IMG/VR virus record: IMGVR_UViG_3300021963_000156
Span: 1-55,758 of that record
Length of the DNA: 55,758 nt
DNA from: a virus
Reading direction: 5' to 3' (one strand)
Position numbers and translations under genes: made by a program. The notes below the pieces were generated by a model that was not told the DNA's origin, ran no database searches, and was given only the letters and a program-made list of their open reading frames with translations. Shown here in pieces: positions 844-46,670 of this stretch. How positions within the stretch are numbered: the stretch's first letter is position 1; each line of letters begins with the position of its first letter.

Positions 844-846
844 ACT

Positions 847-3022: not shown

Positions 3023-3029
3023 AAAAACT

Positions 3030-3104: not shown

Positions 3105-3108
3105 TGGA

Positions 3109-3522: not shown

Positions 3523-3542
3523 AAAAACTCTCCGATATATGG

Positions 3543-3550
3543 TATTTATG
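3543..3550 (-). promoter_or_regulatory. Late-type promoter box (CATAAATA)
   Basis: One mismatch to TATAAATA, ending 20 nt upstream of the ATG at 3522 and followed by a normal ribosome binding site. It would express the gene late, independently of the tRNAs. Confidence 0.45.
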
Positions 3551-3552
3551 TA

Positions 3553-3628
3553 TGGCTCCCCAGCGTGGGATCGAACCACGGACACCTTGATTAACAGTCA
3601 AGTGCAACTACCGCTGTGCTACTGGGGA
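3553..3628 (-). tRNA. tRNA-Asn(GTT)
   Basis: Acceptor TCCCCAG/CTGGGGA, anticodon loop CTGTTAA (GTT), encoded CCA. Confidence 0.92.
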
Positions 3629-3634
3629 ATATTT

Positions 3635-3708
3635 TGGTGCCGCTTGATGGAATCGAACCAACGATTGATGCTTACAAGGCAACTGTTATACCATTTAACT
3701 AAAGCGGC
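3635..3708 (-). tRNA. tRNA-Thr(TGT)
   Basis: Acceptor GCCGCTT/AAGCGGC, anticodon loop CTTGTAA (TGT), one mismatch in the anticodon stem, encoded CCA. Confidence 0.9.
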
Positions 3709-3731
3709 GTAAATCTACTTATATAAAATTT

Positions 3732-3806
3732 TGGCGACCCCACGGAGAATCGAACTCCGATATCCGACTAGACAGGCCGGTATAATAACCACTATATGAT
3801 GAGGCC
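3732..3806 (-). tRNA. tRNA-Asp(GTC)
   Basis: Acceptor GGCCTCA/TGGGGTC, anticodon stem CCGGC/GTCGG with loop CTGTCTA (GTC), discriminator G, encoded CCA. Confidence 0.9.
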
Positions 3807-3811
3807 AAATT

Positions 3812-3900
3812 TGGTGGACCGTGAAGGAATCGAACCTAATCGCCAACCACCCTACATATTAAGGCAACGGATTTACAGTCCGCCGTAGGGAACACAGTCC
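3812..3900 (-). tRNA. tRNA-Tyr(GTA)
   Basis: Acceptor GGACTGT/ACGGTCC, anticodon loop CTGTAAA (GTA), long class II variable arm as expected for bacterial Tyr, encoded CCA. Confidence 0.92.
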
Positions 3901-3905
3901 AAAAC

Positions 3906-3981
3906 TGGTATCGCGGACGGGAATCGAACCCGCCTAGTCACCTTGAAAGGGTGATGACCTAACCCAGAAGTCCACCGCGAT
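3906..3981 (-). tRNA. tRNA-Glu(TTC), copy 2
   Basis: Acceptor ATCGCGG/CCGCGAT, anticodon stem TCACC/GGTGA with loop CTTTCAA (TTC), encoded CCA. It is the first tRNA of the array and its body differs from copy 1. Confidence 0.88.
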
Positions 3982-4762: not shown

Positions 4763-4791
4763 ATTATATTGTCTGTTTATTTATATGTCAA
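4763..4791 (-). promoter_or_regulatory. Consensus sigma70 promoter
   Basis: Perfect TTGACA (4786-4791), 17-bp spacer, perfect TATAAT (4763-4768). With the next promoter it forms a tandem pair. Confidence 0.85.
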
Positions 4792-13199: not shown

Positions 13200-13275
13200 T
13201 GGTGCGTCCGGTGGGAATCGAACCCACGCATCTGGAGTTTTAGAGGCTCCTGCTGTTCCACTTAGCTACAGACGC
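13200..13275 (-). tRNA. Amber-suppressor tRNA, anticodon CTA
   Basis: A full cloverleaf: acceptor GCGTCTG/CGGACGC, D stem GCT/AGC with GTGG in the loop, anticodon stem GGAG/CTCC with an unpaired C-A next to loop CTCTAAA, T stem GTGGG/CCCAC, discriminator A and encoded CCA. The central triplet of the loop is CTA, which reads UAG. It is 9 kb away from the tRNA array, directly after the SPFH gene and before a gene with an early in-frame UAG. The amino acid it carries cannot be told by eye. Confidence 0.8.
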
Positions 13276-17794: not shown

Positions 17795-17823
17795 ATTATA
17801 TACTCAGTTAATAAGTTTGTCAA
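17795..17823 (-). promoter_or_regulatory. Consensus sigma70 promoter
   Basis: TTGACA (17818-17823), 17-bp spacer, TATAAT (17795-17800), just upstream of the metallophosphoesterase. It lies back to back with the plus-strand late box at 17839. Confidence 0.85.
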
Positions 17824-24679: not shown

Positions 24680-25888
24680 ATGAGATTCTTTGAATTTAAT
24701 CAATCAATAAACGAAGGCGGTGATTCCAAAAGCACTCAGTTTAACTCTGAAGTAGGCTTATTAGCCGCAATGTGCGGAGTAGATCCTGCTTCCTTTGACC
24801 CAAAAAATCCTGCCCCTAGTTTTGCTAACAGTACCTATACAGTAGGTAATAGTACCTTTGCTAACATTCAAGCACAGGCAGATAATCACAATCCTACAAA
24901 ATTTAACAAGTGGGTCACTAGTGTGGGACCTAAAGTCGCTAACTTGATTCTAACAGAGTTAACCAAATTGAAAATTCCGGCACCAACTGAGCTATCGTGG
25001 GTAGGTGGTCAGAATCAATCAAGCGTGGCTGATGTTAAATTTGTAAATCATCCAGTAGACGGTATTAGTGTTAAGGAAGCAGGAGCTCCTACATTGGCCA
25101 ACCTAACAGCTAAATCTCTAGGGTTAGACGGTGAGGATCCTGATGTTTTCCGTCAACACGCCCCAGCCGAGTGGGATGCTGTCAAACAATATGTATTCAA
25201 GAAGGTAATTGAAATTGCCAAAGCTCAACCAGGCAAAGCATTTTCACCCATCAAGTCTAAGTATAGCATCACTTATATGGAAGGCGAAATTCCACAAGAT
25301 GCTAAACGGTTAAAAGTTCCTAAGCCTCCCCAACAACAGGCACCAGCTGTAGAAGAAGATGTAGCCAGCGGTGGGTATTTTGTTATCAACTTTGGAGATG
25401 GCATAGTCAATGAACCCGAAGAACGTATCATGACAGACTTGCCGAAAAACGCAGCATGGCAGCGAGTATTCGGTGATTACTTTCAAGGCTATTGGAATAA
25501 AGATACTGATCTTAAACAATTAGGCGAACGTCTGTTTATTAAAATCGGACAAGACTTCGTAGCTAAGATTAAGCTAGGACTGGCACAAGCTGCTAAATTA
25601 CACAGTGCTGTAAAAATGGGAGATAAGAGTTATTTTTATGCGACCCCGAAAGCAGTATTCTATGTTCCATCGGTGACTAGTACTCAAGGTTTAAAACTAG
25701 TCGACCTAAAATACACTGCCCCAAAAGGAACGAATCAGAACTTCTTAGCGACTATTGGGTATCCTGGGCAGACACCAGCCAGTGTACTGATCTATATTCG
25801 TTATGCTAACGGTATCTTTCAAACTAATCCTACCGTAAGGGTACAACGACTCACTAATCCCGAAGGACTAGGTTGGATTAAATTATAA
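24680..25888 (+). CDS. Putative internal head protein, possibly nuclease-like
   Basis: 402 residues. The N terminus MRFFEFNQSINE|GG looks like a T4 capsid-targeting sequence: a short aromatic segment ending in IxE, the site of the prohead protease (cleavage after Glu proposed). Three other proteins in the window begin MRxFEF or MRxTEF (48993, 49370, 52542). The middle region has SVADVKF and GISVKEAG, spaced like the acidic-x-Lys core of PD-(D/E)XK nucleases, which is only suggestive. Such proteins are packaged and ejected with DNA. It is isolated on the plus strand. Confidence 0.5.
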   Translation: MRFFEFNQSINEGGDSKSTQFNSEVGLLAAMCGVDPASFDPKNPAPSFANSTYTVGNSTFANIQAQADNHNPTKFNKWVTSVGPKVANLILTELTKLKIPAPTELSWVGGQNQSSVADVKFVNHPVDGISVKEAGAPTLANLTAKSLGLDGEDPDVFRQHAPAEWDAVKQYVFKKVIEIAKAQPGKAFSPIKSKYSITYMEGEIPQDAKRLKVPKPPQQQAPAVEEDVASGGYFVINFGDGIVNEPEERIMTDLPKNAAWQRVFGDYFQGYWNKDTDLKQLGERLFIKIGQDFVAKIKLGLAQAAKLHSAVKMGDKSYFYATPKAVFYVPSVTSTQGLKLVDLKYTAPKGTNQNFLATIGYPGQTPASVLIYIRYANGIFQTNPTVRVQRLTNPEGLGWIKL

Positions 25889-26560
25889 TTCGGGAAATAA
25901 GCAGTCCTGGATAAAGACCCTAACATCTTCTTCATCAAGACCTAGACTAGTCATGACCCGCGGAGTATGCGGGTTTTGTTTTTGATTCTGTGCGTAAAAG
26001 TTCTGTTCGAATGTAGCATCAGCAACTGTGTTATTAGTTTCACCCACGGTTTCTAAGTAATGGTTTGCCAATATATGTGCCAATGATTCTATCTGATTGA
26101 GTTCTTCATCTTTTTGTACATTACCCGCAGCGACCATATGCGGGCTGAAAATACGCTGTGCCCAGTCAGGCAATTCACGCTTGCGAATCCATTCATATCT
26201 AGCGACTTCTTCGGCAAAGTACTGTATCATATGATGTTCTCGATCTGTGGTAGGACTGTAGTCAATAAAACAGCCAGTGATCTTATTCTTACCAGCTATT
26301 ACATCAAAGCCGAATATAGGTGCCGGGTTATGGATATGAGGGAATACACAGCAGTGCATCATCCAGAGGCCCTTTGTGGATCGGGCATCGACTACATCGA
26401 TATGGGCTCTACGATAATTTCCGCTAGACCAAACCCTATTAACCCAACCCGGCTGATTGAATCGATTCATTCCTGGTTCAAAAATCTCTACACCAGTTTC
26501 TGAAAATAATCTTTCTAGCGTTTGTTGGATATCAACTAGTTTGTTCCAAACTTGACTCAT
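25883..26560 (-). CDS. pcyX: Ferredoxin-dependent bilin reductase (PcyA/PcyX-like)
   Basis: 225 residues, the usual length of the family. MMHCCVFPHIHNPAPIFGFD and the following VIAG (residues 67-90) match the PcyA core, with the His (near 69) and Asp (near 86) that correspond to the catalytic pair. FIDYSPT and the later ELPDWAQRIFSPHMV also align by eye. These enzymes reduce biliverdin to open-chain bilins using reduced ferredoxin. PcyX, a close relative, is known from oceanic phage metagenomes with a heme oxygenase neighbour. Here the gene starts inside the 3' end of the heme oxygenase gene (29-nt overlap), so the two form an operon. The symbol is tentative: it could be PcyA-type. Confidence 0.8.
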   Translation of the reverse strand: MSQVWNKLVDIQQTLERLFSETGVEIFEPGMNRFNQPGWVNRVWSSGNYRRAHIDVVDARSTKGLWMMHCCVFPHIHNPAPIFGFDVIAGKNKITGCFIDYSPTTDREHHMIQYFAEEVARYEWIRKRELPDWAQRIFSPHMVAAGNVQKDEELNQIESLAHILANHYLETVGETNNTVADATFEQNFYAQNQKQNPHTPRVMTSLGLDEEDVRVFIQDCLFPEL

Positions 26561-27089
26561 TGAGTTCCTTCATTATAGCTATGGCATGATCGAATGCGAT
26601 ATTAGCTTCATCGCCTAGATCGTCTGTGAGTTTGGCTCGTATCTTACCTATTAATTCTTCTTTATTTCTAAATTGATAGAACTTACCGCTACCGGGTACT
26701 TTTTTAGCAATCATCTGGCCGCCATATAGATCTCCCATATGACGTACATATAGATGAGCCATTAGTAAGTGGTGTTTAGTTTCATCTTCTGCGAGGGCAG
26801 AGAGGTATTCAGAATAGGCACTAGTGGCTTCTAGTATCTTTATACCGGTTAGGGGAATATCTAGTTCTTTTAGATCTTCAAAAATATATAAGGCACGACC
26901 TAGTCCGGGCAGATCTTTTAGTAGTTCTGCTTTTACGCAATAATATTCTAGTTTGCCGTAGACTTCCAACATCTGGGCTAGATAAAGCCCGTACATTTCT
27001 TTACTGATTTTTCCGCTCAACAAAAGTTTAGCAAATTCTGTGCGTTCTGCGTCCTGATGCTTTTCTTTGGTAAGTTCTTTAAGACTCAT
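26532..27089 (-). CDS. ho: Heme oxygenase
   Basis: 185 residues. It begins MSLKELTKEKHQDAERTEFA, the heme oxygenase N terminus with proximal His 11, and has the LLMAHLYVRHMGDLYGGQM segment of the distal helix with conserved Gly residues. The reaction opens heme to biliverdin, CO and iron using O2 and reduced ferredoxin. The substrate and product fit the adjacent bilin reductase. Cyanophages carry ho for phycobilin synthesis; here the host appears non-photosynthetic, so the product may feed a bilin-binding photoreceptor or scavenge iron. Confidence 0.88.
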   Translation of the reverse strand: MSLKELTKEKHQDAERTEFAKLLLSGKISKEMYGLYLAQMLEVYGKLEYYCVKAELLKDLPGLGRALYIFEDLKELDIPLTGIKILEATSAYSEYLSALAEDETKHHLLMAHLYVRHMGDLYGGQMIAKKVPGSGKFYQFRNKEELIGKIRAKLTDDLGDEANIAFDHAIAIMKELNESSLEQTS

Positions 27090-27146: not shown

Positions 27147-27449
27147 TTATTCTTCCTCTACGCGAATCTGTAAAGGAAAACCGTGCTCTTGAGCTAGCCG
27201 ACTCGATTCAACACCTTTATTTTCTGCTATTTCGTATGTGTAAACACCTACTACAGCAGCACCAGTTTCGTGTATTTCTAATGTGATGTCTCTTGATCTA
27301 GCTTCATCGTGTTTGAACACACCCATTAACAATTCTATAACAAATTCCATAGGAGTATGGTCATCGTTTAAGAACACCACTTTCCACATTTTTGGTGGTT
27401 GAAGTTCTATTTTAATTTTGTCTTCTATTTGGATATCTGTATCAGCCAT
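27147..27449 (-). CDS. clpS: ClpS adaptor protein
   Basis: 100 residues. PPKMWKVVFLNDDHTPMEFV and GVFKHDEA are the ClpS substrate-binding and ClpA-binding segments, with the conserved NDD. ClpS delivers N-degron substrates (N-terminal Leu, Phe, Tyr, Trp) to ClpAP. The phage also encodes a ClpP (5071), so adaptor and protease are both supplied, while a ClpA must come from the host. A GGGGGAG-GAAA-CTCCCCC hairpin lies just upstream. Confidence 0.9.
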   Translation of the reverse strand: MADTDIQIEDKIKIELQPPKMWKVVFLNDDHTPMEFVIELLMGVFKHDEARSRDITLEIHETGAAVVGVYTYEIAENKGVESSRLAQEHGFPLQIRVEEE

Positions 27450-27496: not shown

Positions 27497-27937
27497 TTAC
27501 TTAACCTCAACCACTTCGATCTGGCGTGGTAATAGAGCCTCTGGAACCTTGCGTTCGATCTGGATTAATAGCAGACCGTTTTTAATTTCGGCCTTAATTA
27601 CTTCCATATGTTCCGCAAGTGTAAATCTACGTTCAAAATCTCGGAAACCAAGTCCACGATGTAGATATTCTGGAACATGGGATTCTGTCACTGTTTTTTG
27701 TCCACGGATCGTTAGTTGATCACCTTCAATTTCTACGTTGACTTCATTTTTTTCAAAACCAGCTACTGCGATAACAATATCGTAAAGATTTTCTGAAACT
27801 TTCTCAATATTGTATGGCGGATAGTTATTGGTTAATTGATTAGCAAATCGTGTTTCAAAAGTGTCAAACAACTGATCAAACCCAATTAGAGCTCTGTTAA
27901 GAGCATTAGTGTCAAAACGTGTTAAATTACCATTCAT
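27497..27937 (-). CDS. hsp20: Small heat shock protein (Hsp20/IbpA)
   Basis: 146 residues. An alpha-crystallin domain is seen from about residue 43 (YPPYNIEKVSENLYDIVIAV...), with the GLGFRDFERRFTLAEHMEV strand and an A-x-x-x-G-L-L motif (AEIKNGLLLI) in place. It ends with an I-x-V type tail (QIEVVEVK). The N terminus MNGNLTRFDTNALNRALIG resembles IbpA. Such proteins hold unfolding clients for DnaK, encoded next door. Hsp20 genes are common in cyanophage-type myoviruses. Confidence 0.9.
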   Translation of the reverse strand: MNGNLTRFDTNALNRALIGFDQLFDTFETRFANQLTNNYPPYNIEKVSENLYDIVIAVAGFEKNEVNVEIEGDQLTIRGQKTVTESHVPEYLHRGLGFRDFERRFTLAEHMEVIKAEIKNGLLLIQIERKVPEALLPRQIEVVEVK

Positions 27938-27995: not shown

Positions 27996-29861
27996 TTAAG
28001 TAGTTTGCTTAAACTCCGCATCGACCACATCGTCTTTACTGTCCTCAGTATTTTGAGATTGCTTAGACTCTGCGATCTTTTGGCTGGCAGCAATCAAGTC
28101 GCTGGTCTTTTGAGTGATAGCGTCTTTGTCTGTGCCAGTCAATTCTTTCTGAAGTTCGGCAATAGCGTCCTCAACAACTTTCTTATCTGATTCTGCTAGA
28201 GTAACTTCTTTCATATCATTTTCAACAGTATTAATTAATGCTTCGGCATTATTCTTAGCATCAATCAACTCACGTGCTTTCTTGTCGGCTTCGGCATTGG
28301 CTTCGGCATCTTGGATCATCTGATCGATTTGATCCTTGCTTAGACCAGAATCTGATTTAATAGTGATCTTATTTTCCTTGCCTGTGCCTTTATCCTTGGC
28401 TGAAATATTCATGATGCCGTTAGCATCAATATCAAAGGCTACTTCAATCTGTGGAGTACCACGACGAGCTGGAGCAATACCTTCTAGATTAAATTCACCT
28501 AGTAATTTATTATATTGGAATAGCTCACGTTCGCCTTGACCGACTTTGATAGTAACAGCAGGCTGATTATCTTCAGCAGTTGAAAACACCTGTGATGCTT
28601 TAGTTGGGATAGTTGTGTTCTTTTGTACAAGTTTGGTAAACACACCGCCCATGGTTTCGATGCCTAGGCTTAACGGAGTAACATCTAACAACAACACGTC
28701 GTTGCGATCACCTGCTAGAACAGCACCTTGGATGGCCGCACCAACTGCTACTGCTTCGTCTGGGTTGACATCGCGTCTTGGTGCTTTACCAAATAACTTT
28801 TCAACTTCTTCCTGTACCTTAGGCATACGTGTCTGGCCACCTACTAGGATGACTTCGTCAATGTCCGAGGCACTCACACCTGCATCCTGAAGAGCAGTGC
28901 GGCAAGGTGCTAGTGAGCGGTTGATCAGATCTTCAACTAATCCTTCTAATTTTGCCTTAGTTAGTTTAACGATTAGATGTTTAGGACCCGAGGCATCAGC
29001 AGTGATATATGGCAAGTTGACTTCTGTCTGTGAACTATTAGACAATTCAATTTTGGCCTTTTCAGCTGCATCTTTTAGACGTTGTAGAGCCAGCATGTCT
29101 TTAGTCAAATCAAAACCTTGTTCTTTCTTAAACTCGTCGACCAAGTAATCCATAATACGTTGATCAAAGTCTTCACCGCCTAAGAATGTGTCGCCGTTCG
29201 TGGACAATACTTCAATTTGTTTGTCGCCGTCTACATTCGCGATCTCAATGATCGATACATCGAAAGTACCGCCGCCAAGATCGTAAACAGCAATTTTCCG
29301 GTCAGCTTTATCAGCTTTATCAACGCCATAAGCAAGAGCTGCCGCAGTAGGCTCGTTAATAATACGGAGTACTTCCAAGCCTGCGATTTTTCCAGCATCC
29401 TTAGTCGCTTGTCTTTGGCTGTCGTTAAAGTACGCAGGAACTGTGATAACGGCTTGTGTAACTTCATGTCCTAGATAGTCCTCTGCTGTTTTCTTCATCT
29501 TGCGAAGAACTTCAGCACTAACCTGCGGTGGGGCAAGTTCTTTATCTTGTGCCTTAATCCAAGCATCTCCATTAGAGGCTTCCATGATTTGATATGGCAT
29601 CAAGTCAATATCTTTTTGTACTTCTTTTTCTTTAAATTTACGACCAATCAAACGCTTCGAAGCATAGATGGTGTTTTTTGGATTAGTTACCGCTTGGCGT
29701 TTTGCCGAAGCACCAACTAGTACTTCATTTTCAGTATAGGCAACAATACTAGGTGTAGTACGGGCACCTTCTGAATTTTCAATAACTTTGGAATTTCCTG
29801 ACTCGATGATAGCCACGCATGAATTGGTGGTTCCGAGGTCAATACCGATGACTTTGCTCAT
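27996..29861 (-). CDS. dnaK: Chaperone DnaK (Hsp70)
   Basis: 621 residues, full length. [14 protein letters not shown], the ATPase phosphate loops ([27 protein letters not shown]-type region), the substrate-binding domain and a C-terminal DVVDAEFK end are present. A complete phage DnaK is rare compared with Hsp20. No DnaJ or GrpE is seen here. Two hairpins lie in its 5' leader (TTTGTAG/CTACAAA and GGGC-AGTA-GCCC, 29880-29940), perhaps a regulatory or thermosensing region. A 9-bp hairpin GAGTTTAAG/CTTAAACTC overlaps its stop codon. Confidence 0.95.
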
Positions 29862-29941: not shown

Positions 29942-30523
29942 TTATCTCTGATTTGCTAGCGGTCTAATTAAAACACCATCTATGCTACTAGATGATCTTA
30001 ATTTTTTATATACATTTTGGACACCCACTGCTTGATTCCACGCATCTTCTAAAGCATGATGTTTTAGTACGGGCGGACGCTTAGGGTCAACTCCAATGTC
30101 GAACAGTGTACGGGTATCGCGAACCTCCCAAAATTGCCATGGAATTGCCTTGCCAATTTTACGGAATAAATGCTCGCAAATGATTATGTCAAAACCAGCA
30201 CCGTGACTCCATACACGCTTTGCTCCCCAACAGAATTTGTACAGTTGATTCATAGCATCTATAATATCAATCCTGTTGTCAGGACTAAATGCTTCTTCTT
30301 GTGCTTCTTTGCTTTGACTTGCCCACCAGTCAAGGGTAGATTGTGATACAGTACAGCCTAACTTATCACAACTGTCAATGTCAACTTTAACGTAGAATTT
30401 TTCCATATCGGGTTCGGCTATTTCTTCCCCGAACGGATCAAATTTCACTGCTCCGATAGTTAAAATAGTAGCCGATGGTAAAATATCCAACGTCTCTAAA
30501 TCTATCATAATATCTGTTTTCAT
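29942..30523 (-). CDS. dexA: DnaQ-like 3'-5' exonuclease (T4 DexA type)
   Basis: 193 residues. The motifs are IMIDLETLD (Exo I, DxE), WSHGAGFDII (Exo II) and HHALEDAW (Exo III, HxxxxD). These bind the two metal ions of DEDDh exonucleases. Length and PSATILTIGAVKFDPFG fit the DexA/RNase T group. In T4 DexA is a nonessential DNA exonuclease. It is first after the consensus promoter at 30553. Confidence 0.85.
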   Translation of the reverse strand: MKTDIMIDLETLDILPSATILTIGAVKFDPFGEEIAEPDMEKFYVKVDIDSCDKLGCTVSQSTLDWWASQSKEAQEEAFSPDNRIDIIDAMNQLYKFCWGAKRVWSHGAGFDIIICEHLFRKIGKAIPWQFWEVRDTRTLFDIGVDPKRPPVLKHHALEDAWNQAVGVQNVYKKLRSSSSIDGVLIRPLANQR

Positions 30524-30552: not shown

Positions 30553-30581
30553 ATTATAGCATCTGGAATTTAAAATGTCAA
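30553..30581 (-). promoter_or_regulatory. Consensus sigma70 promoter
   Basis: TTGACA (30576-30581), 17-bp spacer, TATAAT preceded by TGC (30553-30558). The -35 box overlaps the stop region of the bS21 gene. It drives the DexA-like gene and probably the chaperone genes. Confidence 0.85.
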
Positions 30582-31202: not shown

Positions 31203-32940
31203 ATTTTCTTGAGTATTTCGGTTATGGTTTCGAGATCTAATGTTTCTAAGTCTTCTGGATTTATCAATCTTGATCTTAACTGAATGATGAGATTAATGAT
31301 ACGTTGATATTCAGCATCCTCGACTTCTGGAAATTCATAAGTGTCGATGATTTCGTTGGAAAGATATGTGTAAAGTTCGTTGATAAGATCAAATCGATGA
31401 TCTTCGTGTTTGACGTTTTTAAAACTTTTCCAAATAGTAGATTCATTCTGTTCAGAATTTTGTCTATATCCTACTTGAGTGGTTTCTGTATCTGTGTTGA
31501 ACCCATCTTCTCTAGGTAGGTCATATCCTTTTTTTTTAGATCGCTGAGTTTTAGAGATTCGCTCGGCTCTATAACTTCTGTAAGATCAGGCTTAAATCTT
31601 TCTTCTGTTTGAACTGTAGCATTATAACTGTCTGCTATAGTTTCTGGGGAAAGAGAGTCTGTAACGTAATAAGGCTCTTTCATCCAGGGCAATTCTGTAA
31701 TAGTCCCGTGATCAAACATTCGTCTTTGACGCTTTAGACTATCATGTGGATGTTCGGCTTTCCACGCAGTCATTGCTTCTTTTTCTAAGCGATCGGCCCC
31801 GTCAATTATTTCTTCGTCTTCTTTGTCTTGTTCTTCTTGAGCAGCACGTTCTGCTTCTTCAATCATCTTGTTCCAATCTTCTAGAGCAGATTTTTCTTCG
31901 TCTTTGATCTCTTCTTTAGTAGAACCTAATGTAAAACCTTTAACTGAATTTAGAATATTTGATAATCTTAATTTTGTTTCATTGGGCTGATCGACTGAAA
32001 CTTCACCGGCTAGTACTGCCGCATCAGGATCCGGATTTCTTACAGGAAACGGCCAAAACTTGATGGTGTTAGCATCGTCTAGCACGTTTGTGGATTGTTC
32101 TTGTTTATCCCAGAAGCGAGCACGTTCTTTGACCTTATCAAACCAGTTGCTGACTTCAGTATCTTCGGGCTCAGTAGGCCGCTGACCACGAGTCCATTGA
32201 TAGGTCATCTGACTGCCTAACAGCAATAAAACAGCCAGTGGATCGAACACAATAACGATAATAATAATTACCCATGTCACTGCTTTTTCTAATACATTGG
32301 CATCTGGGTTATCACCGTATATTAGTTTGGCGATATATTTTATTGGGCCAACTTCTGCTTCAACCTTACGAACCTCGGCGGCGATGGGTGCCCTTTCTTC
32401 ACTAAGGGCGGCAATAGTTTTCTGTTCGGCTGTAATCTCAGATTGAAGGCGGACACGTTCTTTTTGCTGTGCTCTTCGGATTGCAACAGCTTTGTCGGCA
32501 CCTTTTTCATCACTGCTTCGACCCATAACTTGGTCCACAGCCTCATCCATCTGTTTAATCGCTTTCCGGTTCGCATCGATATTGTCCTTTGCTGTTTTAA
32601 TCTTTTCATCGTAGATGGCGATCTTACTTTGAACATCACCGCTGACAATATTTTGATCTAAGTGTGCTTTTGACAGAAAACCAAAAATGCCCATCGACGT
32701 GATCAACATAAGGACCACTACTGCGATAGACATGTAGATTTTCATGAATCGCGGAATTGATTCCCAATAGGCTTTGAGCCAACTGGCTGCTACTAGTTTG
32801 GCTACTTCTAGTGTGGTGCCCATGACCACTACTGGCCAAAACGCCGCAGCAAAAATAGAAGTTAACCCTATAACGCTGTAATAGATTGCTACAGCGGATA
32901 GGGTTATACCTGTTAGAAATAGTAATAAGGCAAATATCAT
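31199..32940 (-). CDS. Membrane coiled-coil protein with proposed -1 frameshift fusion
   Basis: The zero-frame ORF (31471-32940, 489 residues) has four membrane helices, two at the start, one near residue 70 and one near residue 230 (VTWVIIIIVIVFDPLAVLLL). A long coiled coil sits between helices 3 and 4 and a cytoplasmic charged domain follows. It reads CTA-AAA-AAA-AAG at 31528-31539, the E. coli dnaX-type slippery heptamer A-AAA-AAG, and ends 57 nt later at a UAG. The -1 frame is open past this site for 109 codons (GYDLPREDG..., ending LKKI) to a TGA at 31199 that overlaps the ATG of the next gene. That downstream frame has no ATG, GTG or TTG start. A -1 frameshift would give a 580-residue fusion. 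Confidence 0.7.
31528..31537 (-). promoter_or_regulatory. A-AAA-AAG slippery site for -1 frameshifting
   Basis: Nine A then G, in frame as CTA AAA AAA AAG. Slippage by one base into the -1 frame opens the 109-codon extension. No Shine-Dalgarno-like stimulator is obvious; a weak CCTAC/GTAGG pairing lies downstream. Confidence 0.65.
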
Positions 32941-34152: not shown

Positions 34153-34181
34153 ATTATAGCACCGTAGCCAACCAATGTCAA
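34153..34181 (-). promoter_or_regulatory. Consensus sigma70 promoter
   Basis: TTGACA (34176-34181), 17-bp spacer, TATAAT preceded by TGC (34153-34158), upstream of the LPP20-like gene. Confidence 0.85.
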
Positions 34182-36269: not shown

Positions 36270-36341
36270 TTATCGATTCATCACGTACATAGTGATTTCG
36301 AATCCGTAACGCATTTCAACTGCTTCTGGTTTTGTCCACAT
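36270..36341 (-). CDS. pqqA: PqqA-like PQQ precursor peptide
   Basis: 23 residues: it starts MWTKPEAVEMRYGFEITMY and ends VMNR. This matches the PqqA plan (M-W-x-K-P ... R-x-G-F-E-[VI]-T-x-Y-x-x-N-R) in full, including the Glu and Tyr (E15 and Y19, three residues apart) that are crosslinked to make PQQ. The ribosome binding site AAGGAG is 7 nt upstream. Neither pqqB, C, D, E nor F is seen nearby, so the host enzymes would mature it. PQQ is the cofactor of methanol dehydrogenases in methylotrophs. A precursor gene alone could raise cofactor supply during infection. Confidence 0.88.
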   Translation of the reverse strand: MWTKPEAVEMRYGFEITMYVMNR

Positions 36342-38145: not shown

Positions 38146-39021
38146 ATGAGGATAGAAATACTTTTTGAAAATTCAAATTTGATTACGGTACAGTTGTTTG
38201 ATAATCCCAGCATACGAAAATGGTTTGAGTTTTCAAAAACCTTAGATTACAAATTTAAAAAATCATTCTTAAGAAGATCTGGTCGCATTGGAAACAATAA
38301 GAATCCCACCGAATGGAAAAATGTCGTACAGACATTTGAAAATTTAAAAAACATCGGATATAAAATACCATTTGAAATTTCTCCCGAGTTTAACTATGAT
38401 CAAAATGTCTTAAACCAGATACACAGATTTTTCACTTATAACTGTATGTGGTGGGAATTTCGTAATCATCGACCCAATCCGTTCGATCCTGATTTTTATC
38501 CGCCGCCCTTTATTAAAAAATTTAAAGATTGGTTAGCATTGATTGATCCTATCAATGATGCTGTACATAAGTTAGAAAATGTCGTACACCCAAACAAAAA
38601 TAAATTGCTGTTTGATATATTGCCTTTGGAATTTTTAGATTTTGAAACAGACACAAGTTCTTTGAACTTTCTAGAGTTTACCAAAGAAGATCAACAACAA
38701 AACTTTAACTTTATGAAGACCACTGGTTCAGTTGCTATATTAAATCAATCTATATTAGGTAAAAGTTTTTTACAATCGTTCTTTGACAACGACGATCCAA
38801 CAGCTCTTGACTGTACGGGAAGACTGGGTTCGTTTGGAGGTTTCTGTATTGATGTTAATGAAAATAGAAAAAAAATTTATCAGCATCCTGATTTTGTCAA
38901 ATGGCTAGAAAATTATAATATCGATACGCAGACTGTGCCTTACGAATTTGCCATTGGGCAAGTTGAGTTTAGCGGTCCGATATTAAACAATAGATTTGTA
39001 GCGATAAAATTTGTAGAATAA
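38146..39021 (+). CDS. Hypothetical late protein
   Basis: 291 residues from the ATG at 38146. An upstream in-frame ATG would place the TATAAATA box inside the coding sequence, so the shorter start is preferred. The sequence (MRIEILFENSNLITVQLFDN...) is aromatic and charged with no known domain. It is the leaderless type of late gene, converges with the tmRNA gene, and shares a terminator with it. Confidence 0.65.
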   Translation: MRIEILFENSNLITVQLFDNPSIRKWFEFSKTLDYKFKKSFLRRSGRIGNNKNPTEWKNVVQTFENLKNIGYKIPFEISPEFNYDQNVLNQIHRFFTYNCMWWEFRNHRPNPFDPDFYPPPFIKKFKDWLALIDPINDAVHKLENVVHPNKNKLLFDILPLEFLDFETDTSSLNFLEFTKEDQQQNFNFMKTTGSVAILNQSILGKSFLQSFFDNDDPTALDCTGRLGSFGGFCIDVNENRKKIYQHPDFVKWLENYNIDTQTVPYEFAIGQVEFSGPILNNRFVAIKFVE

Positions 39022-39043
39022 AAAACCCGCCGAAGCGGGTTTT
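39020..39043. terminator. Bidirectional terminator
   Basis: AAAACCCGC-TTCG-GCGGGTTTT with T runs on both strands. It ends the plus-strand gene and the tmRNA transcript from the other side. Confidence 0.9.
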
Positions 39044-39045
39044 GA

Positions 39046-39376
39046 GTTTCTGTTACGAGGTATGTCTTACCCTAAGCTGAGTTTAGGCAGCTAATGCGAA
39101 CTGTTCGTCGTTTGCGTTTACGTTTTTTGCTTCTTCGGCCGGGTTCCCCCAACCCTACGGTTTTCACATTACCGTGCTGTCCACTCTGTTACTCTTTGCC
39201 CTGTCGAAACCAATGTCAGGCCCATCATAAAAGGACTAGTGCGAATACTACGAGTACAACAACTACACCTATTGCTAAACTACCTAGGTTGTCATTCATA
39301 CTAATCTCCTTATGGTGGACCTGGCGGGAGTCGAACCCGCGTCCAGAACACTTTTCTCTTTGCTTCATACAGCAAT
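39046..39376 (-). ncRNA. ssrA: Circularly permuted two-piece tmRNA
   Basis: The acceptor piece comes first: the T arm GCGGG-TTCGACT-CCCGC and the 3' end CAGGTCC-A-CCA (39313-39323), after an ACAG/CTGT hairpin. The coding piece starts with GGGCCTGACATTGGTTTCGAC at 39223, whose first seven bases pair with CAGGTCC (one G-U) to rebuild the acceptor stem. The tag frame (39083-39115) is GCA AAC GAC GAA CAG TTC GCA TTA GCT GCC TAA, giving ANDEQFALAA. Gene order acceptor then coding is the permuted form. The tag resembles betaproteobacterial ones, a lineage in which permuted tmRNA is also known. Between the pieces is an 89-nt segment that carries a micropeptide ORF. Confidence 0.92.
39225..39299 (-). 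CDS. Membrane micropeptide inside the tmRNA intervening segment
   Basis: 24 residues: MNDNLGSLAIGVVV then VLVVFALVLL, a single hydrophobic segment. The ATG at 39299 follows an AAGGAG that begins one nt past the tmRNA CCA, and the TGA ends one nt before the first G of the coding piece. The ORF thus fills the intervening segment almost exactly. It is expressed only from the unprocessed or excised segment. No homologue is known to me. Confidence 0.65.
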   Translation of the reverse strand: MNDNLGSLAIGVVVVLVVFALVLL

Positions 39377-39382
39377 ACTGTT

Positions 39383-39411
39383 ATTTAACACTCTTCTATT
39401 GAGTTTGTCAA
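39383..39411 (-). promoter_or_regulatory. tmRNA promoter
   Basis: TTGACA (39406-39411), 17-bp spacer, TTAAAT (39383-39388, weak). The predicted start near 39376 gives an acceptor piece of about 64 nt. Confidence 0.6.
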
Positions 39412-39412
39412 C

Positions 39413-40057
39413 TTATATGTGTAGCGTGTTCAATTTACCTCCCAAATTCCCGCTAGGAAATACATTAAATGCTAGACTATAACGGACGATATTGGAATGA
39501 TTTTCGCCTACTCCGTGATACAGATGACTAGGAAACATTATTAATTCGTTTGGCTTAGGGTAGATCCCCCATCCGTCTGCGTTGAATATGTTTAACCTAC
39601 TTTGATCTTCGTGTGTTTGATAATTGAATTCAATGTCTATAACATTAGGCCAAAGATTATAGTAACTCTTATCTTTTTCAAATACAATAGCACCGCTTTG
39701 TTGATCGACATCAATGTAGTACACACCGCTGATCAAACTATTTGAATGTCTGTGGGTGCCGGCGAAATCTGCCTGGCCGTGCCTATTGATCCAACTGTTT
39801 TGTATTTCAAATTTAACTTCGCGTGAACAATCCAGCACTTCGTAGACAAAATGGTTTATGCCTTTTATAATACGTTCTTTTAGAAAAGTTAGTTCTGGTT
39901 TTTCTAAAACATATTTGTCTTTGGTATAGTCACCATTATCAGCTGGCATTCTTTCATATTCCAGATTTAGAATAAACTCATGTTCTAAAGAAGTTAACCT
40001 GCCTAGTTGGGTTTGATATAAAGGAATAGCAAATAATGGAGTAACTTGATAATTCAT
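39413..40057 (-). CDS. 2OG-Fe(II) oxygenase, copy B
   Basis: 214 residues. Key residues of the dioxygenase fold are visible: THRHSNSLISGVYYIDVDQ with the metal His and Ser/Asn, YGDNWG-like turns, a second metal His in MFPSHLYHGVG and the 2OG-binding Arg in SNIVRYSLAFNVFP. This is the family of phage-abundant '2OG-Fe(II) oxygenase 5' proteins that modify proteins or small molecules with O2 and 2-oxoglutarate. It is a paralogue of the next gene (shared PLYQT, LISGVYY and YSLAFNVFP). ATGA overlap shows coupling. Confidence 0.8.
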   Translation of the reverse strand: MNYQVTPLFAIPLYQTQLGRLTSLEHEFILNLEYERMPADNGDYTKDKYVLEKPELTFLKERIIKGINHFVYEVLDCSREVKFEIQNSWINRHGQADFAGTHRHSNSLISGVYYIDVDQQSGAIVFEKDKSYYNLWPNVIDIEFNYQTHEDQSRLNIFNADGWGIYPKPNELIMFPSHLYHGVGENHSNIVRYSLAFNVFPSGNLGGKLNTLHI

Positions 40058-40680
40058 AGTATCAATTCGCTGTTACCGCCCTCGCCAATTATGCCTCTAG
40101 GAAAAACATTGAACGCTAGACTATAACGATCCTCAGTTGATAGATTATCCATGACACTGTGATTTAATATTGACGGAAATAACAGTAGATCGTTATTTTT
40201 TGGATTAATAGCACAATCAGTATTATATTCTGTAGTCTTGTCAAAGTCTATACAAAATGTGTCACGCCAAAGATTATTATGCGAGCGTTCTTTGTGAAAA
40301 CCAATGGCTCCAGACCTAGGATTGGTCTTTAGATAATATACTCCGCTGACCATACTGTTGCTATGCCAGTGCATTGAATGATAACCCCCAGGCAATGATT
40401 TATTCAACCAACTGGTGGTTATTAACCACTGTTGTTTTCTAGTCACTCCCAAAACTTCGTAGACATATTCATCAACTTTTTCTTGTATCTGTTTTTTAAG
40501 ATTAGCGAATTGTGGTTGATCTAACAAATGTCTCTTAGGTGTTTCTAAGTGTGTGGGGTCAGAGTCATTGAAGTTACTAAACTCTGAATTGATCAATATC
40601 TTTTCTATTATTGGATCAGGACCTTTGATTGAAGTCTGATACAAAGGAATCGGAAATAAGTTATGCATCTTGTAGGTCAT
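40054..40680 (-). CDS. 2OG-Fe(II) oxygenase, copy A
   Basis: 208 residues from the ATG at 40680 (ATGA overlap with the DUF454 gene). HWHSNSMVSGVYYLKTNP, LLLFPSILNHSVMDN and EDRYSLAFNVFPRG correspond to the two metal ligands (His) and the 2OG Arg of the family. It is tandemly duplicated with copy B; they share about the same length and motif order. Confidence 0.8.
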   Translation of the reverse strand: MTYKMHNLFPIPLYQTSIKGPDPIIEKILINSEFSNFNDSDPTHLETPKRHLLDQPQFANLKKQIQEKVDEYVYEVLGVTRKQQWLITTSWLNKSLPGGYHSMHWHSNSMVSGVYYLKTNPRSGAIGFHKERSHNNLWRDTFCIDFDKTTEYNTDCAINPKNNDLLLFPSILNHSVMDNLSTEDRYSLAFNVFPRGIIGEGGNSELIL

Positions 40681-41087
40681 TTTAACCAACCTACCTTTTC
40701 TCCGTTATCAATGCGTCTAGTATGTTCGGCAACGCTGCCAGGAAAACGCCAAGCCCAAATAGCAACAAGTCCCATAAAAATTGCGGTACTGATAATTCCA
40801 ATTAATTTCACTCCTGTGAAGTACATGATGATCAGGCTAGTTGACATCATAGCTATCATAAAAAATTTCATCTTGGTTGGAAATACACGTTTGGTATTCC
40901 AATTAGTCAAGAATGGGCCAAACAGTTTATGATTATAGATCCATCTGTGCATACGTTCGCTACCTTTGCTAAAACAGTAAGCGGCAAATACCACGAACGG
41001 ACTATAAGGTATGCCAGGAGTCACAACTCCAATATAGGCCATTCCCAGACTTAGGAAACCTAATATGTTCCAAAATAATTTTTTCAT
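40677..41087 (-). CDS. DUF454/YbaN-like inner membrane protein
   Basis: 136 residues with several membrane segments (LGFLSLGMAYIGVVTPGIPYS, FFMIAMMSTSLIIMYFTG, LIGIISTAIFMGLVAIWAW). The N-terminal LGxxxxxLGxxGxxxPxxPxxPF pattern is typical of DUF454. Function unknown. Coupled to the oxygenases. Confidence 0.8.
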   Translation of the reverse strand: MKKLFWNILGFLSLGMAYIGVVTPGIPYSPFVVFAAYCFSKGSERMHRWIYNHKLFGPFLTNWNTKRVFPTKMKFFMIAMMSTSLIIMYFTGVKLIGIISTAIFMGLVAIWAWRFPGSVAEHTRRIDNGEKVGWLK

Positions 41088-42600: not shown

Positions 42601-43713
42601 TTAAATTGTTGGTAATTCTTCGTAATCGATCTTGTCACTCATGACCCCGATTACATAGTTAGTCGATTCGTTTTCTTGTAACGCAGTTTGTTTTTTGCTG
42701 GTATCGCTGTGTTTATTGAACCACGGTATTGGTGTAGTTTTTGGAGCAGGAGAATGATATTTGATACCGATCTCTTTGAGGGCGTTAACAGCCGTATAGT
42801 CAACAAAGTCTTTGAGAATAGCGGCATTCAATCCAATCACTGGACCTTTCTTAAACAAATAGTCAGCCCATTCTTTTTCTTCGCGTATAACATCCATGTA
42901 TAGATTATATACTTCTTGTTCGCATTCTTGTTTAGCTTTAGCGAATCTAGGATCTTCTTTGATTACCTGATTAATCAAAAACGCAGTCCACCCTTTGTGT
43001 AGTAGTTCGTCTTGTAAGATTAGGCTAATAATGTTTCCGTTACCAATAAAGATCTTATTCTCAACCATTGCTAGACTTGTGGCAAATGAAACCATAAAGC
43101 GGAACGCTTCTAGTGCATAGCTGGCATTTAGTGCTAACCAAATTGCTTTGATATGTTTTTCTTCGCTAACCATACCTGTCATTTCACTACTTAATTCTTT
43201 ATGGCAATTTATTCTGTGTAGTTCGTCGTAGTATCGACCAACACTTGATGCCATATCTACGATTTCTTTAGTGTCGTGAATGGTGTTGAAAACTTCTTTA
43301 GGCACATTATAAATGTTACGGATGATGTGGCTATATGAGCGACTATGGATATTTGTTTCAAAGAATGTCCAGTTGTAGACTAGGCTTTCAAGTTCAGGTA
43401 GACTTACCACAGGAGTAAAAATTTGACTTGGACCACGTCCTTGTAAACTATCCAATGCTGTTTGGCGTAGTAGATTACTAGTGAAGATGTGTTTAACGGC
43501 ATCGCTGGCATCTTTAAAATCATTAGCATCTTTGCTTAGACTGATCTCCTCGGGAACCCAAAAGAAGCCACGTGCTGTCTTTTCAAAGTCTACGATCTTA
43601 TTGTATTTGACTTCTTCAAATCGTTGTATGGTTACAGGTCCTGCTGGATCGAGAAACATCTTACGATTAAGATAATCTGTCTTTGTGTGTAAATTGTATT
43701 GTTGTTGGCTCAT
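42601..43713 (-). CDS. nrdB: Ribonucleotide reductase beta subunit NrdB
   Basis: 370 residues. The di-iron ligands are visible: the D/E near ...LPELESLVYNWTFFETNIHSR, the EKH in VSEEKHIKAI and the later EL-H in QDELLHKGW. The radical Tyr is in the ASSVGRYYDEL region. Length and NIISLILQDELLHK fit class Ia. The ATG overlaps the stop of a small ORF between nrdA and nrdB. Confidence 0.95.
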   Translation of the reverse strand: MSQQQYNLHTKTDYLNRKMFLDPAGPVTIQRFEEVKYNKIVDFEKTARGFFWVPEEISLSKDANDFKDASDAVKHIFTSNLLRQTALDSLQGRGPSQIFTPVVSLPELESLVYNWTFFETNIHSRSYSHIIRNIYNVPKEVFNTIHDTKEIVDMASSVGRYYDELHRINCHKELSSEMTGMVSEEKHIKAIWLALNASYALEAFRFMVSFATSLAMVENKIFIGNGNIISLILQDELLHKGWTAFLINQVIKEDPRFAKAKQECEQEVYNLYMDVIREEKEWADYLFKKGPVIGLNAAILKDFVDYTAVNALKEIGIKYHSPAPKTTPIPWFNKHSDTSKKQTALQENESTNYVIGVMSDKIDYEELPTI

Positions 43714-43883
43714 TTTGTTTCCAATGTTATTTGTCCGTCTACTATTACTACTCTCTTAACTTGTTTCCCGTCAACATATACAGGAAGTTCAGCCCAAGTC
43801 TTTTTTATAGCACCAGCATCTGGCCTGTGTGCTAATTCTTGCCAAGCCTTAAATAATTCTTGATGTAAGTCGTATGCGTCCAT
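43710..43883 (-). CDS. Small protein between nrdA and nrdB
   Basis: 57 residues (MDAYDLHQELFKAWQELAHR...). The ATG overlaps the nrdA stop (TAATG) and its TGA overlaps the nrdB ATG (ATGA). A helical first half is followed by the DGKQVKRVVIVDGQITL strand pair. The tight coupling suggests coexpression with RNR at set ratio; function unknown. Confidence 0.65.
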   Translation of the reverse strand: MDAYDLHQELFKAWQELAHRPDAGAIKKTWAELPVYVDGKQVKRVVIVDGQITLETK

Positions 43884-46213
43884 TATAACTTACAAGCCTC
43901 GCAGTCATCTTCTAAATCTACTTCTACATAATTCTGTGCCACGCTTTGAACTAAATCTTCTTCTTTGGCTCTACTACCTGCTTTATTGATTAAACTGTAA
44001 TAGAATGTCTTCAATCCCCATACATGAGCCTGCATCAAGTTCTTGGCAATCAATGTCGTAGGAACTTTGCGATCAGCGAAGTGTGCTGGATTGTAGAATG
44101 TGTTAGTTGAAATTGATTGATCGACATAGGCAGCTAGTACTGCTGCTGTTTTAATATATCCATCACAGTCTTTCTGTTCCCACATCAATTGATATTTGTT
44201 TTTCAATCTTTGATATTCAGGAACTACTTGTGTAAAGGATCCAGCTTTGCTTTCTTTAGTAGAGATCAGGCTCATAGGTAATTCAATACCGTTAGTACTG
44301 TTAATAACAACAGAGCTTGACTCCACAGGAGCAATAGCCATAAGAGTGGCATTTCGTACTCCATGTTCTTTCATCTCCTTGCGTAATGTCTCCCAATCAA
44401 GTTCGGGAGTAAAGTCAGCTAACTCGTTGACTCCGTTGGCACGTGACTCCCAGGGGAATATGCCTTGGCCGTATCGGGTATGTGAGCTATGCTGACAAGC
44501 ACCTCTTTCTTTGGCCAGTTCAACTGTTGCTTCTGTTAGATAGTAGGCCTGATGCTCCATCCATGTTTTAACTTCTTGTAAGGCATCTTTTTCTCCGTAA
44601 CGTAAACTACGTTTGGCATGCCAGTAGGCTAGATTTGTGACGCCAATACCCAATGGCTGTATCTCATCGTTACTGAGTTTGCTCTGTATCGATAAGAAGT
44701 CTTGATAGTCAAGGATGTTACACAGGCTACGCTGTAGAATCCTACAGGCTCTACGCATGTCCTCTGGATTTCGGAACGATCCCCAGTTGATAGATCCCAG
44801 TGTACATAACGCTATGCGACCACTATCGTCGTCGAGTCGTTTAAAGGGACGTGTGGGTAATAGGATCTCACAGCACAGGTTACTCTGATATATCGTATGA
44901 TATTCAGGATCAAAAGGTCCTTGATTCATTACATTATCAATGAACACCAAATAGATACGACCTGTATCTGTGCGTTCTTTCAGTATACCACCCTTGAAAA
45001 CTTCTTCAGCACTGATGACTTTCTTTCGAAGATCCTTACGTTTTTCATATTTTACGTACAGCTCTTCAAATCGATCAGTGTTCTGATAAAATGCTTCATA
45101 TAAATCCGGTACTTGGTTAGGATCAAAGAAAGTTATATTTTCTTTGTTTTTGAATCTTCTCCAGAACATAGCGTTAAGCACAACCCCATAATCCATATGA
45201 CGGACTCGGGTTTCTTCTGTTCCTTGGTTGTTCTTAAGCACGATAAGGTCATCAAACTGATGATGCCAAATAGGATAGAATACAGTAGCACTAGCATTAC
45301 GAATGCCTCCTTGTGAACATGAGCGTAGATCACCAAACCATTTCTTTAAGAATGGGATCATGCCTGTGTGCATGATCTCACCACCTCTGATGGGGCTACC
45401 TAACGGGCGTAGTCGTCCAATTTCCAAACCAATGCCTGCTCGCTTGCTGGCATACTTGGCCATCATCTCACCACTAGCAAATATAGAATCCAGATCGTCG
45501 TCACTGCGGATAAGCACACAACTAGAAAACTGTTTAGTAGGAGTGCCAAGCCCAGCCAGCACAGGTGTAGCAAGAGTAAACAAGCCATCTGAAGAACAGT
45601 TGTAGTACTCTTTGATGTAACGCATACGGGCCGAGTTAGGTTCTTCCTTATGAAAGACTGTAGCGGCGGCCACCATGTATCTAACTTGGGGAGTTTCATA
45701 AATTTCCTTTGTCGCACGATTGCGTACCAAATATTTTTCAATTAACTGTTCGATGGCGGCATACGAGTACAATTCGTCTTTTTCGTGATCTATAATCTCG
45801 TCCATCTTGTTCCAGTCGTCTTCTGAATACCATTCAAGAAGTTCGGGAGTGTATAATCCTGTAGCAACATTTGTCTTTACGATATCATAGAGGCGGGGAG
45901 GATTGTACTGGCCATATACATCCTTGCGTAGCATTGACAAACGTTGTTTGCCTGCTACGTATTGATAATTTGTGTGACCTACATCTGGATTGTGTTCAAT
46001 GTCAATAAGGTCTACAATAGCTCTTAGAGTTAAAGAATCTATTTCTTGTGTTGTTATGCCGTCATAGAAATGTGGACTAGCTTTGATCTCAATCATTGAT
46101 TGACTGACATCTGCTATTCCACTACATACTTTTGTAATCTGTGCCTGCCACTTCTCTAGCGTCAGTGGTTCTCTGGATCCGTCTCTCTTTACTACTACAA
46201 TACTATCGTTCAT
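43883..46213 (-). CDS. nrdA: Ribonucleotide reductase alpha subunit NrdA
   Basis: 776 residues from the ATG at 46213; the longer upstream frame would include the TATAAATA late box. It starts MNDSIVVVKRDGSREPLTLEKW, an ATP-cone like N terminus. The active-site Cys lie in the SSCVLIRSDDDLDSI and CSQGGIR regions, and the C terminus CEACKL holds the CxxC pair that exchanges with glutaredoxin. Class Ia. Confidence 0.95.
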   Translation of the reverse strand: MNDSIVVVKRDGSREPLTLEKWQAQITKVCSGIADVSQSMIEIKASPHFYDGITTQEIDSLTLRAIVDLIDIEHNPDVGHTNYQYVAGKQRLSMLRKDVYGQYNPPRLYDIVKTNVATGLYTPELLEWYSEDDWNKMDEIIDHEKDELYSYAAIEQLIEKYLVRNRATKEIYETPQVRYMVAAATVFHKEEPNSARMRYIKEYYNCSSDGLFTLATPVLAGLGTPTKQFSSCVLIRSDDDLDSIFASGEMMAKYASKRAGIGLEIGRLRPLGSPIRGGEIMHTGMIPFLKKWFGDLRSCSQGGIRNASATVFYPIWHHQFDDLIVLKNNQGTEETRVRHMDYGVVLNAMFWRRFKNKENITFFDPNQVPDLYEAFYQNTDRFEELYVKYEKRKDLRKKVISAEEVFKGGILKERTDTGRIYLVFIDNVMNQGPFDPEYHTIYQSNLCCEILLPTRPFKRLDDDSGRIALCTLGSINWGSFRNPEDMRRACRILQRSLCNILDYQDFLSIQSKLSNDEIQPLGIGVTNLAYWHAKRSLRYGEKDALQEVKTWMEHQAYYLTEATVELAKERGACQHSSHTRYGQGIFPWESRANGVNELADFTPELDWETLRKEMKEHGVRNATLMAIAPVESSSVVINSTNGIELPMSLISTKESKAGSFTQVVPEYQRLKNKYQLMWEQKDCDGYIKTAAVLAAYVDQSISTNTFYNPAHFADRKVPTTLIAKNLMQAHVWGLKTFYYSLINKAGSRAKEEDLVQSVAQNYVEVDLEDDCEACKL

Positions 46214-46251
46214 TCTTGCCTCTAATTTTCTTTCTTTTGTCGTTGAGGTAG

Positions 46252-46259
46252 TATTTATA
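46252..46259 (-). promoter_or_regulatory. T4-type late promoter for nrdA
   Basis: Perfect TATAAATA, ending 38 nt upstream of the ATG at 46213, with an ordinary ribosome binding site (AGAGG) in between. Confidence 0.7.
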
Positions 46260-46265
46260 ACATCC

Positions 46266-46670
46266 TCATACTGGGTAAATTTTATTAGATCCATGTGTGA
46301 GCTCGCCCGTGTTAGTGACTTCCCTATGAAAAAAATTCAATACATCGCGGTCATTAACTACTACGATATATCTTTCTTCTCTGGAAAACATAGACGTATG
46401 TATCTCTACTTTTTGGCTCTTAAAACGTTCTGTTAATGTCAAAGTATAACACATACCCAATGCGATAGCAAGGTCGTCATACTTATTATCTATGATTAAA
46501 TGCCACGGATCGGGCCAATCGGATGTATAGTTTGGATCTAAGTATCGATGAACGAATGGAGTTCTACTCCAAAAGAGAGCTACATCCTCTAAAGGATGTT
46601 CGGATGTCTCAAGTGACTGGCGAAATTCTTTCCAGACCTTGAGTCTAGAAGTTTGATCGAGATCAAACAC
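46266..46670 (-). CDS. Conserved phage hypothetical protein
   Basis: 134 residues. The segment HPLEDVALFWSRTPFVHRYL and the DPWHLIIDNKYDDLAIALGM stretch fit a family common in T4-like phages with no assigned role. Overlaps the spike gene start by 8 nt. Confidence 0.75.
   Translation of the reverse strand: MFDLDQTSRLKVWKEFRQSLETSEHPLEDVALFWSRTPFVHRYLDPNYTSDWPDPWHLIIDNKYDDLAIALGMCYTLTLTERFKSQKVEIHTSMFSREERYIVVVNDRDVLNFFHREVTNTGELTHGSNKIYPV

What the first reader, a model, noticed from the sequence alone, without database searches (positions are those of the whole stretch)
25883..27089. Heme oxygenase plus PcyA/PcyX-like bilin reductase operon in a phage of a probable non-phototroph
The two genes overlap and encode consecutive steps heme to biliverdin to a reduced bilin. 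PcyX is reported from oceanic phage metagenomes, but its host and use are unclear. Here the context (PqqA, tmRNA type) points to a methylotrophic betaproteobacterium, which would make a chromophore for a phytochrome-like sensor, or simply draw down heme iron.
Basis: partly seen in the sequence, partly recalled or inferred. Interest (0 to 1): 0.8.

Follow-up and report, generated by a model that had tools for sequence, protein, structure and literature searches.

The report
Phage heme-to-bilin genes in chaperone operon
A virus that probably infects non-photosynthetic, PQQ-using bacteria carries a known two-enzyme kit for turning heme into a pink bile pigment; the newer point is that in this whole virus group the kit sits in a conserved operon-like block with protein-repair and protein-destruction genes, which suggests heme and iron recycling rather than light use.

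Summary
Positions 26532-27089(-) encode a heme oxygenase (HO). Positions 25883-26560(-) encode a ferredoxin-dependent bilin reductase of the PcyX type: 232 bits to solved PcyX against 59 to PcyA, with the PcyX catalytic Asp55, predicted to make phycoerythrobilin (PEB). The genes overlap by 29 nt.

The HO+PcyX pair is not new; it is known from marine pelagiphages, including isolate Mosig. New here is a second large PcyX clade (the best 80 of 331 IMG/VR matches, 71-94% identical). In 43 of 48 dereplicated contigs the order is dnaK-hsp20-clpS-HO-pcyX on one strand. In the window this follows a perfect sigma70 promoter.

A cyanobacterial host is very unlikely: PqqA occurs in 18/40 and betaproteobacterial tmRNA in 24/40 related records. 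Methylophilaceae is plausible, not proven.

The phytochrome reading is not supported. PEB cannot photoisomerise. GAF domains occur in 0/40 phage records, phytochromes in 0/20 small PqqA-bearing Burkholderiales.

Best inference: heme breakdown and iron recycling within a proteostasis/iron/redox gene block. The role is inferred, not shown.

The parts
25883..26560 (-). pcyX: PcyX-type ferredoxin-dependent bilin reductase, 225 aa (D55, H69, D86)
   Evidence: Pfam and PDB matches, invariant active site, tree, model
26532..27089 (-). hemO: heme oxygenase, 185 aa (His11, GDxxGG at 119-124)
27147..27449 (-). clpS: Clp protease adaptor
   Evidence: PF02617 1e-27; conserved neighbour
27497..27937 (-). 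hsp20: small heat-shock protein
   Evidence: PF00011 5e-17, phrog_432; conserved neighbour
27996..29861 (-). dnaK: Hsp70 chaperone, 621 aa
   Evidence: 70-75% identical to Burkholderiales DnaK; conserved neighbour
29942..30523 (-). 3'-5' exoribonuclease (Rv2179c-like), first gene of the apparent operon
   Evidence: PF16473 2e-38; 39 dereplicated loci
30553..30581 (-). sigma70 promoter-like site TTGACA-17-TATAAT with extended TG, 12/12
   Evidence: 4 perfect sites in the window against 0.02 expected
36270..36341 (-). pqqA: PQQ precursor peptide MWTKPEAVEMRYGFEITMYVMNR (host context)
   Evidence: in 18/40 related records
39019..39412 (-). permuted betaproteobacterial-type tmRNA, tag ANDEQFALAA (host context)
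   Evidence: 24/40 related records
42601..46294 (-). nrdB (42601-43713) and nrdA (43883-46294), class I RNR, likely iron user
39413..40689 (-). two 2OG-Fe(II) oxygenases, likely iron users
   Evidence: PF13759

Best explanation
It is a phage heme-catabolism cassette of the known hemO-pcyX kind. HO opens heme to biliverdin IXa, ferrous iron and CO. PcyX, fed by a host ferredoxin, reduces biliverdin by four electrons, most likely to phycoerythrobilin (PEB). The two genes end an apparent operon (exoribonuclease-dnaK-hsp20-clpS-hemO-pcyX) with a strong sigma70 promoter-like site, so the enzymes are probably made early together with chaperones and a Clp adaptor. The most likely benefit is recycling: as host proteins, including heme proteins, are remodelled or degraded, the cassette removes free heme and returns its iron for iron-dependent phage enzymes (class I RNR, 2OG-Fe(II) oxygenases, Fe-S assembly in relatives). 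PcyX drains biliverdin so that HO keeps turning over, and PEB is mainly an end product. Shown by sequence: gene identities, active-site residues, gene order, promoter match. Inferred: PEB as product, co-transcription, early timing, iron and heme as the selected benefit. Host: a non-phototrophic betaproteobacterium that makes PQQ, plausibly a methylotroph.
For: PcyX identity. HO identity. Linkage: 59 of 66 loci with enough upstream sequence, 43 of 48 after dereplication, keep dnaK-hsp20-clpS-HO-pcyX on one strand, median gaps 99/55/6/11 nt, while HO has diverged to about 40% identity. Perfect promoter, 4 sites against 0.02 expected, at matching positions in many relatives. Iron and redox setting: NrdAB, two 2OG-Fe(II) oxygenases, AhpC, CMD-family protein, glutaredoxin in the window; A-type Fe-S carrier in 22/80 and IscU in 19/80 related loci about 8.5-9.3 kb upstream, Fe/Mn SOD in one. 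No light-sensing use evident: GAF 0/40 phage records. Non-phototroph host; FDBR in 0/399 Burkholderiales genomes. Iron supply and phytochrome roles are both discussed but left open in PMC11480375.
Against: No activity, expression or iron measurement exists. For iron release alone HO would suffice, so the invariant PcyX could mean that the bilin itself matters. PMC11480375 reports alaS beside hemO-pcyA/X in other phages, which fits flux towards bilin rather than net iron gain. No Fer2 ferredoxin in 40 related records, so reducing power must come from the host. Co-location in an accessory-gene region does not prove joint function; IscU/IscA were found in only about a quarter of loci (many are cut there) and not in the window. 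The marine clade keeps hemO-pcyX without dnaK/hsp20/clpS in the short flanks held.
Confidence: 0.45

Rival explanations
1. The synteny is incidental: hemO-pcyX rides in a cluster of early accessory genes inherited by descent, with no functional tie to dnaK-hsp20-clpS.
For: The region mixes many unrelated accessory genes, and marine relatives have the pair without the chaperones in the flanks held.
Against: Order is kept in 43/48 dereplicated loci although HO has diverged to about 40% identity, with short gaps in most.
Confidence: 0.25
2. The bilin is the point: PEB (or the bilin made) acts as antioxidant, signal or ligand in the infected cell.
For: PcyX and its active site are invariant although HO alone releases iron; AhpC, a CMD-family protein and glutaredoxin in the window; alaS cassettes in other phages (PMC11480375). 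HO and FDBR are kept in algae without phytochromes or phycobiliproteins (abstract of PMC5974162).
Against: No bilin-binding protein was recognised in the window proteins scanned or in 40 records (GAF only tested).
Confidence: 0.2
3. The bilin is a chromophore for a host phytochrome-like sensor.
For: About 11% of sampled Burkholderiales have a PHY domain (33/300); Bradyrhizobium ORS278 has a hemO-pcyA-alaS-bphP island (PMC11480375).
Against: PEB has a saturated C-D bridge and cannot isomerise (PMC5578081). None of the 20 sampled PqqA-bearing genomes of 2.6 Mb or less has PHY. No GAF in 40 phage records. Typical bacteriophytochromes use biliverdin itself (own knowledge).
Confidence: 0.07
4. The phage infects a cyanobacterium and supports phycobilisomes.
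For: The best known use of phage bilin genes is in cyanophages.
Against: Betaproteobacterial tmRNA, PqqA, DnaK close to Burkholderiales, no photosynthesis gene seen in the window, separate reductase clade.
Confidence: 0.02

Closest known systems
hemO-pcyX cassette of pelagiphages (isolate Mosig EXVC030M; metagenomic PcyX_EBK42635, structure 5owg)
   Same: HO directly followed by PcyX with a small overlap; same catalytic residues; PcyX 47%, HO 39% identical to Mosig
   Different: Separate clade next to it; dnaK-hsp20-clpS context, against a 2OG-oxygenase-rich context in Mosig; betaproteobacterial signals instead of SAR11; Mosig carries its own 2Fe-2S ferredoxin, none found in 40 related records here
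CB_2 freshwater phage vHemO + vPcyA (PMC11480375)
   Same: Phage-borne HO + FDBR; proposed host a methane-oxidising non-phototroph
   Different: CB_2 enzyme lacks Asp55 and makes PCB; the window keeps Asp55 (CB_2 sequence itself not compared here)
Cyanophage ho1/pcyA/pebS
   Same: Same reaction types
   Different: Cyanophage PcyA is only 23-31% identical over the matched parts and lies in another clade; phototrophic hosts
Lake Baikal T4-like Methylophilaceae phages VP_139/VP_266 (PMC7678222)
   Same: PqqA and RNR; a class II aldolase, reported there, is also next to RNR genes in relatives L313 and L315 (family tested in L313)
   Different: Baikal genomes carry methanol dehydrogenase, not found in 40 records here; the words heme oxygenase and bilin do not occur in that paper

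Membership tests
PcyX (phage PEB synthase) | Clusters with PcyX rather than PcyA or PebS | tested here: met
   Window clade (support 83) next to marine PcyX clade incl. 5owg (100), apart from PcyA (98); the node joining all PcyX has only 55, and no alphaproteobacterial PcyA was available
PcyX (phage PEB synthase) | Asp at position 55 in place of PcyA Glu76 | tested here: met
   D55 in the window and in 81/81 loci of the set
PcyX (phage PEB synthase) | Makes PEB from biliverdin with ferredoxin | not testable with these tools
   Needs an enzyme assay
PcyX (phage PEB synthase) | Phage gene in a cassette with hemO | tested here: met
   HO present in 78/80 related loci
PcyA (PCB synthase) | Catalytic Glu76, His88, Asp105 | tested here: not met
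   His and Asp kept (H69, D86) but Glu replaced by D55
PebS | Sequence membership in PebS clade | tested here: not met
   PebS falls far outside, is not among the phmmer hits and ranks low in Foldseek
Heme oxygenase (HO-1/HmuO type) | All-helical fold, proximal His, GDxxGG distal helix | tested here: met
Heme oxygenase (HO-1/HmuO type) | Converts heme to biliverdin IXa | not testable with these tools
   Needs an enzyme assay
Methylophilaceae T4-like phages (Baikal VP_139/VP_266) | PqqA | tested here: met
   Window; 18/40 relatives
Methylophilaceae T4-like phages (Baikal VP_139/VP_266) | Methanol dehydrogenase | tested here: not met
   0/40 related records, many of them fragments

The most novel reading that the evidence does not exclude
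The clade carries a dedicated early heme-and-protein salvage operon: chaperones and the ClpS adaptor (with phage ClpP and tmRNA) help dismantle host proteins while HO-PcyX removes the released heme and hands its iron to phage RNR, 2OG oxygenases and Fe-S assembly. This would be a phage counterpart of coupling heme breakdown to the heat-shock response, with PEB as waste or antioxidant.
Probability: 0.3. Interest if true: 0.7.

Novelty: new variant of a known kind. Interest (0 to 1): 0.48.

Why it matters
Why phages of non-phototrophs carry hemO and FDBR genes is called enigmatic in the current literature (PMC11480375). A large PcyX clade with betaproteobacterial host signals and a strictly kept chaperone/protease/heme-oxygenase gene order gives a concrete, testable answer (heme and iron recycling during takeover) and points away from light use. 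That paper also says PcyX had so far been found only in marine viruses; where this clade lives could not be checked here.

Tried and rejected
Host from DnaK: 70-75% to many Burkholderiales, no single family. Host from tmRNA tag ANDEQFALAA: found in Rhodocyclaceae, Limnobacter, Uliginosibacterium and also Pasteurellaceae, so not decisive; Melnitz shows that phage tmRNA need not match the host (PMC9004378). Host from tRNAs: window tRNAs do not match G265. NrdA and DUF6267 protein searches against named phages gave no close relative. Photoreceptor reading: rejected as above. Methanol dehydrogenase and Fer2 ferredoxin in phage records: none. FDBRs in bacteria for the tree: none in 399 Burkholderiales or 398 Pseudomonadota genomes, none on plasmids, so no alphaproteobacterial PcyA is in the tree. 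HO search of viral contigs reached few loci because HO diverges fast. First tree run failed on a thread setting and was repeated. PqqA was too short for a viral scan. A first report call was malformed.

Full report
Observation. Two overlapping minus-strand genes are present exactly as stated. The 225-aa product is a ferredoxin-dependent bilin reductase (PF05996). Its best solved relative is PcyX_EBK42635 (232 bits), far ahead of PcyA (59 bits), and PebS is not in the hit list. The 185-aa product is a heme oxygenase (PF01126). AlphaFold models of both are confident and match 5owg and HO structures.

Family assignment. Aligning to PcyA, Glu76/His88/Asp105 correspond to D55/H69/D86 in the window. 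PMC11480375 names Asp55 as a PcyX-specific catalytic residue, absent from the PCB-making CB_2 enzyme. D55, H69 and D86 are present in all 81 loci of the first set; in the second set the only three sequences with Glu are the cyanophage PcyA references. In the tree the window lies in a clade of 30 representatives (support 83) next to the marine clade with Mosig and 5owg (100); the PcyA clade has 98. The node uniting all PcyX has only 55, the PebS branch is very long, and bacterial PcyA was not available, so the deep order is not settled. PEB as product is a prediction.

Known relatives. Among annotated phages only pelagiphage Mosig has a close relative, HO plus PcyX, at 39% and 47% identity. The cassette kind is therefore known. 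IMG/VR holds 331 matches to the window reductase, the best 80 at 71-94% identity, some in records of 214-364 kb.

Operon context. Of 66 loci with at least 4.5 kb upstream, 59 have dnaK, hsp20, clpS, HO and pcyX in order on one strand, with median gaps of 99, 55, 6 and 11 nt, though some gaps are longer. After removing loci with reductases 95% or more identical it is 43 of 48, with HO identity to the window down to 40%. In the window a perfect extended sigma70 site lies just upstream of the exoribonuclease gene that precedes dnaK; four such perfect sites occur in the window against 0.02 expected, and a near-perfect site upstream of dnaK occurs in 30 of 47 distinct loci. Consensus matches are not proof of transcription. 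The marine set has none of dnaK, hsp20 or clpS in its flanks, which average only 7 kb.

Iron and redox setting. The window encodes NrdA/NrdB, two 2OG-Fe(II) oxygenases, a fatty-acid desaturase, AhpC, a CMD-family protein, glutaredoxin and ClpP. Related loci add an A-type Fe-S carrier (22 of 80) and IscU (19 of 80) about 9 kb upstream, and an Fe/Mn SOD in one. Fe-S assembly genes in marine phages are already known (PMC5332604).

Host. tmRNA of the betaproteobacterial type: window and 24 of 40 related records. PqqA: window and 18 of 40 records; 61 of 300 sampled Burkholderiales have PqqA. In a sample of 20 PqqA regions the ending MYVMN occurs only in four genomes of 1.3-1.4 Mb, and phage PqqA ends MYVMNR. 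One of these genomes, G265, has 37% GC, an XoxF-like methanol dehydrogenase, an IscU 80% identical to a relative's phage IscU, and no HO or FDBR detected. Against: its tmRNA is one-piece with another tag and its tRNAs differ. Baikal T4-like phages assigned to Methylophilaceae carry PqqA and a class II aldolase (PMC7678222). I conclude: non-cyanobacterial, probably betaproteobacterial, plausibly methylotrophic.

Function. Light sensing is unlikely: PEB cannot isomerise, no GAF domain in 40 records, no PHY domain in the 20 sampled PqqA-bearing genomes of 2.6 Mb or less, while 33 of 300 genomes overall have one. These 40 records are mostly fragments, so absences are weak. The electron donor would be a host ferredoxin: none of the Fer2 type in 40 records, while G265 has candidate 2Fe-2S and 4Fe-4S ferredoxins by motif. 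The best explanation is heme removal with iron recycling, PcyX draining biliverdin. The main weakness is that iron release needs only HO; a role for the bilin itself remains open.

Verdict. Real, correctly read enzymes; a new clade and a new, strongly conserved context of a known cassette; function inferred.

Noticed in passing
window 36270-36341(-): Phage PqqA peptide; PqqA also in 18 of 40 related records, including ones of 278-364 kb.
   Followed up: partly
window 13200-13275(-): tRNA with CTA anticodon (called Pyl by ARAGORN), a possible amber suppressor; only 5 of 76 listed genes end in TAG, and 31471-32940(-) could be read on for 64 codons past its TAG.
   Followed up: partly
window 51-3981(-): Array of 23 tRNA genes; no close match to a streamlined methylotroph genome.
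   Followed up: partly
window 4763-4791, 17795-17823, 34153-34181 (-): Three more perfect TTGACA-17-TATAAT sites.
   Followed up: no
L071:763-1179, L031:1024-1371, L315:611-916: Phage-borne IscU and A-type Fe-S carriers upstream of the module in about a quarter of related loci.
   Followed up: partly
L071:12793-14094, L061:12515-13084: Curli secretion genes csgG and csgF downstream of pcyX in about half of dereplicated loci, as in pelagimyophage HTVC008M and methylophage Melnitz.
   Followed up: no
L008:17964-20051: CHASE2-adenylate/guanylate cyclase protein in 21 dereplicated loci.
   Followed up: no
L002:16354-17124 (Mosig_00059): Annotated 'putative ferrochelatase', but no Pfam match; the sequence has an HxD motif and looks to me like a 2OG-Fe(II) oxygenase.
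   Followed up: partly
window 39019-39412(-): Two-piece tmRNA with tag ANDEQFALAA, although the best-fitting host-like genome has a one-piece tmRNA.
   Followed up: yes
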